Below, in pieces: positions 926 to 3,397 of a stretch of 64,000 bases of DNA. A model generated the notes under the pieces. That model had not been told where the DNA came from and made no database searches. It saw only the letters and a list, made by a program, of their open reading frames with translations. The first letter of the stretch is position 1. The number at the start of each line of letters is the position of its first letter. The stretch comes from Pirellulaceae bacterium (GTDB lineage: Bacteria; Planctomycetota; Planctomycetia; Pirellulales; Pirellulaceae): contig BPJV01000005.1 in assembly GCA_026004795.1 (NCBI GenBank), positions 248,001 to 312,000 of the forward strand. Direction: 5' to 3'. The position numbers were made by a program, and so were the translations under genes.

Positions 926-984
926 CGTACTGGTCCACCCTGCGCTGCCGTGCCTCATAAGTTCAATATTTTGGTGCCATCGGC

Positions 985-994
985 TGTCTTAGGG
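985..994 (+). repeat. IS end (right end of the element), inverted repeat copy
   Basis: TGTCTTAGGG here is the exact reverse complement of bases 2354-2363. It overlaps the transposase stop codon (989-991), so almost no non-coding DNA follows the gene at this end. Beyond it lies GGC and then the right-target match at 974-981. Confidence 0.75.
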
Positions 995-1945
995 ATTGTC
1001 AAGAGCGAGTGAAGGCTCGCGATAGTTTTGTTTGTTTTTCTCCATGGCATTGAGGATCAGGAGCAGTTTGCGCATGACGGCGACCAAGGCAACCTTCTTG
1101 GGCTTTCCTTTGGCCAGTAGCCGTTGGTAGAACGCTTTCATGGTTTCGTTGTGGCGCACGGCGACGATGGCCGCCATGTAGAGGACCTTGCGGATGTTGG
1201 CGCGGCCAGCCGATGTGCTGCGGCGACGCTGCACCGTGCCGCTGTCGCGAGCCAGGGGAGCCACACCCACGAGCTTGGCAATCTGCCGTCTGTTGATCTG
1301 GCCCAACTCCGGCAGTTCCGCGATGAGGGTGGCCGTGGTGGCCGGGCCGATGCCCGTAGCGCTTTGCAGGCGCTCGGCCTGCTGCTGAAACTCGGGGCTC
1401 TGGAGCAGTTTTTTGATGCGCTGATCCACCTCTTTCAACTGCGCGGTATAAAACTCGATGGCTTGGCCGATCAGTTGTTGGACCTCGGGGTCCTGCGTCT
1501 GCTTGAGGCGATTGCGCTCGGCCCCGAGGTGCTCGAGAATCTGACTGCGGCGGCGATTGAGCATCAGGAGATGCTTCTGGTTTTCGCTGGGCGGTTGCTT
1601 TAGCTGAACCGGGACTACCTGGCCGAACCGAGCGATGATCGAGGCGTCGATCTTATCGGTCTTTTCCAGCAATCCGCAGCCTCGGGCGAAGTTGCGGATC
1701 TGCAGCGGGTTGACGACGGCCACGTCGATGTGGGCCTCGTGCAGAGCCTCGACCAGCTGGCTTTCGTAGCCTCCGGTTGCCTCGGTGACGACCAGCGATC
1801 TAGGCGGTATCTGGCCGACCCAGAGCTGGATTTCCTGCTCCGTGTTTTCGACTACCTGGTGCTTCTGCGAGCCCGATTGGTACACGTCGAGCTTGTCCTT
1901 GGAAACATCGACACCGATCACGTTTTCGTAGCTAGAGTGATTCAT
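989..1945 (-). CDS. IS110-family transposase (bridge-RNA-guided DEDD recombinase)
   Basis: This is a 318-aa protein, the usual IS110 size. The start is ATG at 1945 ([19 protein letters not shown]); the ORF track's longer N-terminus only reads through the upstream RNA region. The N-terminal RuvC-like DEDD domain shows its acidic residues in [23 protein letters not shown] and [15 protein letters not shown] helical linker follows (about residues 120-195). The C-terminal Transposase_20 domain has [20 protein letters not shown] and [13 protein letters not shown], then [13 protein letters not shown]; the Ser in RDSG is the likely nucleophile. The enzyme recombines donor and target DNA chosen by a bridge RNA. 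The reading frame is intact and every motif is present, so the element may still be active. Confidence 0.95.
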
Positions 1946-2115
1946 TGCATTCCCTGGATAGTAAGTTCGAGCTCTAGTGGCTCCCACGGCTGTTCGGGAT
2001 GTACAATAAGAGCGGACCGGCGCTCGTGATGGCACTCGACATCGACCGCACGGTCGTGTCCACCCATGACGAGCTGCCGAGTCCGCGTGCCTGCCGGGAG
2101 CGACCCGGCAGGCAC
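1946..2115 (-). ncRNA. Putative IS110 bridge RNA (seekRNA)
   Basis: Read on the minus strand, the region opens with a 12-bp hairpin (GTGCCTGCCGGG at 2087-2098 pairs with CCCGGCAGGCAC at 2104-2115, 5-nt loop). A long stem-loop follows, closed by GCGGAC/GTCCGC (2086-2081 with 2017-2012), CGGC/GCCG and CTCGT/ACGAG. An apical hairpin CGACC-gtgc-GGTCG splits its internal loop into two single-stranded sides: CATGGGTGGACA (2068-2057) and ATGTCGAGTGCCATC (2042-2028). This is the architecture of a target-binding loop. AUGGGUGG on the left side pairs with the left flank (one G.T wobble), and GUGCCAUC on the right side pairs with the right flank. A second, weaker loop just before the transposase start holds ACAGCC (1993-1988), which repeats the element end. 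The 3' limit and donor loop are uncertain. Confidence 0.65.
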
Positions 2116-2353
2116 TTCCTTTTCTTAAGATAGGCTTGGCTCCTTTGCTACGGGGCAGGCCAGTCTCCTTTCTCGTGGAGGCGTTAATCTCTGGGAGGCG
2201 TTCAGTGGTGCGTCCTGGCGACGCTCCCTCGGGCTTCACCAACAAAGGCAACGGTTGCCTCGTCAGTCGCCAGCGTCGGTCGCCAACTCGCTGCGCTCGA
2301 ACCGGGCGAGCGACCGACGGCTGGCTCCGACGAAGGCAACAAGGAGGGCCTAC

Positions 2354-2363
2354 CCCTAAGACA
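2354..2363 (-). repeat. IS end (left end of the element), inverted repeat copy
   Basis: CCCTAAGACA here is the inverted partner of 985-994. The next bases outward, 2364-2371, are the left-target sequence that pairs with the bridge-RNA left guide. The element therefore ends at about 2363. Confidence 0.75.
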
Positions 2364-3397
2364 CTACCCATTTTGCGTGTTGCTGGAAACCCATATCGCC
2401 GAGGGACTTACGAAGGCATCCAGCATGGAGACCACTTGGCGAAATGACGCCGCGAGTCGCCAGCCGCGTATCGCATCGCAAACCATTCGGGATGACGCAC
2501 TGTGGGATCCTGCTGTTGGACCAGAAATGGCGAAGTACTGGCTGTAGAGCGGTACTGGAAATGAATGGACAGGAAAAAAATAGCTCCATCCATTGAGCAA
2601 CGAAGACTGGGTTGCAGGACATTGTTTCGGCAGTGCCTTTCAGCTCCGCAGAGGAAGCTGCCCTACTTCATCATGCAGAATTGACGTTCGCCCGCGGATT
2701 GCCCTAAGGAAGAGATTTGATTGATCGAGGCCGCCAGTTGCGTTGTTTGGTTGAAAGGTAACCCACCGTCATGATGCCGCGAAGTTCGCATGCGTAGTGT
2801 CTTCGTAGTCGACGGGGCACCGGTTGGCATCGGTCGGCAAATTGCGGTGAAGGAGAGATGGGGACTGAAGTTTGCCCTGCCGGCGAAGGATGGTTTGCCA
2901 CGCGACTTACTGAATCCTTCGTTTTCAACTTCCGTAAGCGAGCGGACTCGTATTATTCCCGTGTTTTCCGGTCGCTAGGGATGACTGCCGCTACTGTGGA
3001 GAAAGTATAGCACCTCACCTTGTGGGATACCCTTGCGGCGAAGACTTTCGCAGGGAATGCACTGCACGACGGCAGAGCAACCGCCCCGCACCAGAGCGGG
3101 GCAATATACCGATGGAGCGAAAGGCGGCTTGTGTGATCAACGTTGGAACGCAGCGCTTCGAAGCACGGCTGACCACGACGGGCCATCCGTGGATGGCAGA
3201 AACACCTTCGCCGTTGATTCGTCCAACCAATTCCCAGGTGAACTGGCCATCCCAGCGACACTAGGGCTGAGGCACATCACTTATCCACCGACATCGCCCG
3301 GCCTTTGCGGATTCATGACAGCGGCAGTTGCGGTGTGGAGGGGAGTAGAAAAGGGCAAAAAGGATAGCAGAGCCGCCCATCCCAGAGGCAGCACCAG
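2364..3397. other. About 1 kb without a convincing gene
   Basis: The six-frame ORFs here are short, overlap on both strands and resemble no family I know. A 7-bp GC hairpin (GCCCCGC at 3083-3089 with GCGGGGC at 3096-3102) lacks a T-tract. The start of the interval is the left flank of the IS. It may hold eroded sequence, but I see no readable remnant. Confidence 0.5.

What the first reader, a model, noticed from the sequence alone, without database searches (positions are those of the whole stretch)
974..2371. IS110 bridge RNA whose two target guides can be matched to the insertion flanks
Seen in sequence: the non-coding region upstream of the transposase folds into a 12-bp hairpin and then a stem-loop with a split internal loop. 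The left side contains AUGGGUGG (2067-2060), which pairs with the left flank ATGGGTAG (minus strand 2371-2364) with one G.T wobble. The right side contains GUGCCAUC (2035-2028), which pairs exactly with the right flank GATGGCAC (minus strand 981-974). Both flanks sit within a few bases of the inverted ends. Known: IS110 recombinases choose their targets with a bridge RNA in this way. Inference: this element has an intact RNA-recombinase system, and its original target was ATGGGT-AG-...GATGGCAC; AG at both junctions is a candidate core.
Basis: partly seen in the sequence, partly recalled or inferred. Interest (0 to 1): 0.75.

Follow-up and report, generated by a model that had tools for sequence, protein, structure and literature searches.

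The report
IS110 bridge RNA, re-read correctly
A jumping gene in a planctomycete-like genome carries an RNA that, by base pairing, matches both its own ends and an 11-base repeat scattered through the host chromosome, so it appears to choose its landing sites the way the recently described IS110 'bridge RNA' elements do.

Summary
The element is an IS110-family insertion sequence at window 979-2365 (1387 bp, minus strand), with recombinase 989-1945 and a complete predicted bridge RNA, about 1951-2115. The reading of the junctions is wrong in three ways. (1) AG is not a core; it is the element's own first two bases. (2) GAT of GATGGCAC is the element's own last three bases. (3) The empty target is ATGGGTGGCACC; the element inserted between T and G. 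TGGGTGGCACC occurs 82 times in the genome, against 5 for the reversed control. Gapless paralogous unoccupied sites confirm the junction. In seven related elements guides match their own flanks better than swapped flanks (permutation p 0.0004 LTG, 0.0008 RTG, 0.002 LDG, 0.02 RDG). LTG spells the target core (GT), RTG the donor core (AT), as the IS621 'handshake' model predicts. The genome also holds ~400-bp deletion derivatives lacking recombinase and bridge RNA. New member of a known kind, with some informative variant features.

The parts
979..2365 (-). whole IS110-family element, 1387 bp, AGTGTCTTAGGGG...CCCTAAGACAGCCGAT in recombinase sense
   Evidence: copies at unrelated loci share these ends and differ outside, apart from target bases; gapless paralogous empty sites
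2366..2371 (-). left half of target, ATGGGT (IS621 positions 4-9; core GT)
973..978 (-). right half of target, GGCACC (positions 10-15)
989..1945 (-). IS110 recombinase, 318 aa (start [11 protein letters not shown]), DEDD_Tnp_IS110 + Transposase_20
   Evidence: Pfam E 1.2e-20 and 1.1e-20; IS621 8wt6 E 5.2e-33 and ISCro4 9t56 E 4.6e-33
1946..2365 (-). long left non-coding end (420 bp) that carries the bridge RNA; the right non-coding end is only 979-988
2354..2363 (-). subterminal inverted repeat, left copy TGTCTTAGGG, 2 bp from the left end
   Evidence: 10/10 match to the right copy
985..994 (+). subterminal inverted repeat, right copy TGTCTTAGGG, 6 bp from the right end
2087..2115 (-). 5' stem-loop of the bridge RNA, 12 perfect base pairs
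2012..2086 (-). target-binding loop: outer stem GCGGAC/GUCCGC, inner stem GCUCGU/ACGAGC, central hairpin CGACC/GGUCG
2062..2067 (-). left target guide AUGGGU (pairs bottom strand of target positions 4-9, including core GT); two further bases GG at 2061-2060 equal target positions 10-11
   Evidence: A/G polymorphism at its first base among the five copies
2028..2035 (-). right target guide GUGCC (target 14-10) + AU (donor core AT; G.U wobble with target core GT) + C (donor G7, handshake base)
1951..1999 (-). donor-binding loop: closing stem UCCC/GGGA, inner hairpin GAGC/GCUC
   Evidence: stem varies compatibly in relatives (GGGC/GCCC, GGGGC/GCCCC)
1987..1993 (-). left donor guide ACAGCCG, identical to the element's right end ACAGCCG-AT
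   Evidence: relatives ACAGUCG/ACAGTCG, ACAGUUG/ACAGTTG, AUAGUCG/ATAGTCG
1956..1963 (-). right donor guide UACUAU (pairs donor ATAGTG, one wobble) + CC (pairs target G7-G6 after strand exchange)
   Evidence: weakest of the four guides, p = 0.02
997..1002 (-). [quoted passage not shown]
   Evidence: kept in relatives G036, G021 (TTGACA) and G107 (TTGACG); -10 match weak here, not tested

Best explanation
This is an IS110-group insertion sequence with an intact, IS621-like bridge-RNA system. A non-coding RNA from the left end (about 1951-2115, minus strand) should be bound by the recombinase. Its first loop pairs with a chromosomal repeat ATGG-GT|GGCAC: LTG AUGGGU with the bottom strand, RTG GUGCC with the top strand. 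Its second loop pairs with the element's own joined ends ACAGCCG-AT|AGTG: LDG ACAGCCG, RDG UACUAU. The recombinase cuts both top strands after the T of the core, exchanges them, and inserts the circle without net target duplication. The left junction keeps the target core GT and the right junction keeps the donor core AT. Shown by sequence: element ends, target, four guides, covariation in relatives. Inferred from IS621: RNA expression, circle formation, cutting and exchange. The element lives mainly in, and spreads among, copies of a host intergenic repeat that carries the target motif.
For: Recombinase family and closest solved relatives IS621 and ISCro4. Ends fixed by 5 near-full and ~20 partial copies. 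Target TGGGTGGCACC 82 copies vs 5 for the reversed control; gapless unoccupied paralogues for copies L023 (49 nt, L056) and L024 (60 nt, L048). RNA fold z -5.1. Guide-flank matching in seven elements from different genomes better than in swapped pairs: LTG p 0.0004, RTG p 0.0008, LDG p 0.002, RDG p 0.02, target loop combined p 0.0002. G036 relative: LTG GACCCU and RTG GCGGGAG for target GACC-CT|CCCGC, itself part of a repeated palindrome. RTG core/handshake bases AU-C match the donor ...G-AT, as the IS621 structure predicts after exchange (PMC11208158).
Against: No RNA or activity data. No second strain with the orthologous empty site could be found. The core first base disagrees between target (G), donor (A) and LDG (U), so pairing at position 8 is imperfect. 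L085's RTG matches only 5 of 7, and G107's best RTG match is shifted. Permutation uses only seven elements, with guide windows cut by hand.
Confidence: 0.93

Rival explanations
1. One reading: the target read ATGGGT-AG-...GATGGCAC with AG as the core, and all eight bases on each side are flank.
For: GUGCCAUC pairs with all eight bases GATGGCAC.
Against: AG and GAT are present in copies at unrelated loci, and empty paralogues lack both. TGGGTGGCACC is the repeated genomic motif, G at position 8 being by far the commonest. AG does not occur at the right junction.
Confidence: 0.03
2. The fold is a 5'-UTR regulatory structure of the recombinase gene (or an IS-borne terminator), and the guide matches are chance.
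For: It lies directly upstream of the recombinase start and is G+C-rich; one weak Rfam match (PtaRNA1, 27.5 bits against a gathering score of 47) nearby.
Against: Four separate matches in the right order and strand; covariation with flanks across seven elements; 0.01% for both target matches in shuffles.
Confidence: 0.03
3. A decayed, no longer active copy: the system once worked but this family is now dead in the genome.
For: About 20 truncated copies; position-8 mismatches in the donor loop; other genus members searched hold no close copy.
Against: Two copies (window and C3:701553) are 99.7% identical over the whole element; five frames are open; guides kept apart from one A/G change.
Confidence: 0.15

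Closest known systems
IS621 of E. coli (IS110 group), bridge RNA; PMC11208160 and PMC11208158 (both Nature 2024)
   Same: DEDD/serine recombinase related over nearly full length; bridge RNA upstream of the gene in a long left end; 5' stem-loop, target loop, donor loop; guide order LTG-RTG-LDG-RDG; target in an intergenic repeat; no target duplication; handshake bases.
   Different: Target repeat differs from E. coli REP; 10-bp subterminal inverted repeat rather than 2-3 bp; ~250 bp with a large extra inverted repeat between left end and RNA; core GT in target but AT in donor rather than CT in both.
IS1111 group / seekRNA (Siddiquee et al. 2024 PMC11187229)
   Same: Clear subterminal inverted repeats; guide RNA; repeat targets (compare the REP inside QMITE2 targeted by Coxiella IS1111, PMC5896051).
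   Different: Here the RNA is upstream, guide order is IS110-type, and the extensions beyond the repeats are 2 bp left and 6 bp right, not 7 and 3.
ISCro4 (PDB 9t56)
   Same: Best solved-structure match of the recombinase (E 4.6e-33).
   Different: Guide sequences and target not compared here.

Membership tests
IS110 family | DEDD RuvC-like domain PF01548 plus C-terminal PF02371 domain | tested here: met
   both above gathering score
IS110 group (not IS1111) | long non-coding left end upstream of the gene, short right end | tested here: met
   420 bp against 10 bp
IS110 group (not IS1111) | guide order: bottom-strand match (LTG) before top-strand complement (RTG) | tested here: met
   criterion from PMC11187229
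IS110 group (not IS1111) | no or only 2-3 bp subterminal inverted repeats | tested here: not met
   10-bp perfect repeat TGTCTTAGGG; PMC11187229 reports exceptions, so this is a soft criterion
IS1111 group | guide RNA downstream of the gene | tested here: not met
   only 10 bp follow the stop codon
bridge-RNA system | target guides match the insertion site on both sides | tested here: met
bridge-RNA system | donor guides match the element's own joined ends | tested here: met
   LDG 7/7, RDG 5.5/6
bridge-RNA system | guides covary with target and donor among homologues | tested here: met
   seven elements, permutation p 0.0004 to 0.02
bridge-RNA system | RNA is transcribed, bound by the recombinase, and redirects insertion when recoded | not testable with these tools
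   needs bench work
bridge-RNA system | promoter across the circle junction | tested here: inconclusive
   TTGACA at the right end; no good -10 here, better in relatives (TATGTT, TATCTT)

The most novel reading that the evidence does not exclude
Miniature derivatives (~400 bp, same internal deletion at three loci) that lost both recombinase and bridge RNA but kept both ends may be moved in trans by a full copy's RNA-protein complex. This would be an RNA-guided non-autonomous element that carries neither the enzyme nor the guide.
Probability: 0.45. Interest if true: 0.5.

Novelty: new member of a known kind. Interest (0 to 1): 0.4.

Why it matters
It adds a well-resolved natural bridge-RNA system from a planctomycete-like genome, with target, donor and all four guides readable from sequence. 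Because target and donor cores differ (GT and AT), it is a natural test of the IS621 handshake model: the LTG follows the target core while the RTG, and the tail of the RDG, follow the strand arriving from the partner DNA. The related elements give a small set of natural recodings (ACCCT|CCCGC, CCACCCT|ACGG, GCGACT|TCGAG) useful to those who engineer bridge RNAs.

Tried and rejected
Orthologous empty site in another strain: the closest contig (Gemmatales KatS3mg105, L071/G119) matches one truncated copy locus at 98.8-99.8%, but that genome holds none of the queried occupied loci; the contig may be misbinned. Rfam search gave only a sub-threshold PtaRNA1 match. A one-ended or reverse-transcription-like origin of the 5'-truncated copies was considered because many start 5-40 bases after an intact target; ordinary deletion within clustered targets explains it as well, and two of them (L025, L026) lie in a 1.5-kb segmental duplication. 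A first permutation test was discarded because two windows contained the element's own flank; it was redone. A MAFFT alignment of the seven RNAs misplaced the target loop, so helices were checked by hand; L074's target-loop stem as I wrote it there did not pair in register.

Full report
What is there. The window lies in a 5.59-Mb genome of 17 contigs. The element carries an open frame with both IS110-family Pfam domains; its closest solved relatives are ISCro4 and IS621. A BLAST of the element against its own genome gives five near-full copies, about 20 partial ones and several ~400-bp derivatives. The host is probably a Gemmatales planctomycete: one locus matches a Gemmatales metagenome contig at about 99%; this is an inference.

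Ends and target. Lining up the copies in recombinase sense, every readable intact left end reads (A/C/G)TGGGT|AGTGTCTTAGGGG, and right ends read CCCTAAGACAGCCGAT|GGCAC with few decayed exceptions. Outside TGGGT and GGCAC(C) the flanks differ. TGGGTGGCACC occurs 82 times in the genome against 5 for the reversed control. With N at the fourth position of that motif the count is 105, mostly G. Joining the two flanks of occupied sites and comparing with unoccupied repeats gives gapless matches across the junction: 49 nt for L023 against L056, 60 nt for L024 against L048. So the empty site is TGGGTGGCACC. The element is 979-2365, and it inserted without net duplication.

The RNA. The region from 2115 down to 1951 (minus strand) folds with z = -5.1 (fold of 1946-2125). 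It has a 12-bp stem-loop, a target loop and a donor loop, each with a split internal loop around a hairpin. The donor loop's stems were assigned by hand; the minimum-energy fold draws that part differently. In IS621 numbering (core = positions 8-9; PMC11208158) the target is A4 T5 G6 G7 G8 T9 | G10 G11 C12 A13 C14 and the donor A1 C2 A3 G4 C5 C6 G7 A8 T9 | A10 G11 T12 G13. LTG AUGGGU pairs with target 4-9. RTG GUGCC-AU-C pairs with target 14-10, then with donor core AT and donor G7. LDG ACAGCCG equals donor 1-7. RDG UACU-AU-CC pairs with donor 13-8 and then target G7-G6. The IS621 structures show that after top-strand exchange the RTG pairs with the incoming donor core and the RDG with the incoming target bases. 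Here, where the two cores differ, the guides are split in just that way. This reading is an inference from sequence.

Covariation. Related recombinases (34-49% identity) were found in other genomes of the family and in Mesorhizobium and other assemblies. For six of them ends, flanks and RNA could be read. The best pairing of each RNA with its own flanks was compared with all 5040 reassignments: LTG p 0.0004, RTG p 0.0008, LDG p 0.002, RDG p 0.02, target loop combined p 0.0002. Examples: G036, LTG GACCCU and RTG GCGGGAG for GACC-CT|CCCGC, part of a palindrome found 11 times as an uninterrupted sequence in that genome; L087, RTG CUCGAAG for CT|TCGAG; L085, LDG ACAGUUG for ACAGTTG; L074, LDG AUAGUCG for ATAGTCG. 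Helix strands change together as well: the donor-loop hairpin is GAGC/GCUC, GGGC/GCCC or GGGGC/GCCCC.

Variation inside the genome. LTG starts with A in the window copy and L021 and with G in L022, L023 and L024, while their flanks start A, C, G, G, A. Three of five agree exactly and one by wobble.

Miniature derivatives. L029, L030 and L032 keep about 150 bp of the left end and 260 bp of the right end, share one internal deletion junction, and lack both the RNA and most of the gene. L029 has both junctions with the target; the left ends of L030 and L032 are decayed. This fits movement in trans. But L029 and L030 share about 30 bp of right flank, so copying by segmental duplication or homologous recombination is not excluded.

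Known or new. The system fits the IS110 group of bridge-RNA elements (PMC11208160, PMC11208158, PMC11187229). It differs by a 10-bp subterminal inverted repeat, more typical of IS1111, and by unlike target and donor cores. It is a new member of a known kind. No transcript, circle or activity has been shown.

Noticed in passing
G000 C7:171016-171419 (L029), C1:241288-241690 (L030), C2:395887-396288 (L032): Miniature ~400-bp derivatives with a shared internal deletion, no recombinase and no bridge RNA; candidates for trans mobilisation.
   Followed up: partly
all copies: With a staggered exchange the core should be a heteroduplex resolved at random, yet all intact left ends read GT and nearly all right ends AT; the 12 G036 copies also show only the top-strand pattern (C at position 7 left, G right). 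Why one strand is always kept is unexplained.
   Followed up: no
L025, L026, L027, L028, L033, L034, L038, L039, L040: 5'-truncated copies with intact right ends whose left breakpoint lies shortly after an intact target motif, at varied points inside the element.
   Followed up: partly
L041-L070; window 30158-30232: The target motif often ends a ~250-500-bp intergenic repeat (typical end ...CCTAACTTCTTATCGCAGAGACACTTGCGTCAACCCAATGGTGGGTGGCACCAAACTGCC) and also sits in short tandem clusters; its own nature is unknown. Genus member G120 has 43 copies of the motif but no close copy of this element.
   Followed up: partly
window 2120-2353: Between left end and bridge RNA this element has ~250 bp with a large inverted repeat (CCAGCCGTCGGTCGC...GCGACCGACGCTGG) that relatives such as G036 lack; it is kept in the miniatures but lost in copy L024.
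   Followed up: no
L087 (G020): Relative with an unusually long (~20 bp) subterminal inverted repeat, AAGTTACGAG(T/C)ACTCCATCAGG.
   Followed up: no
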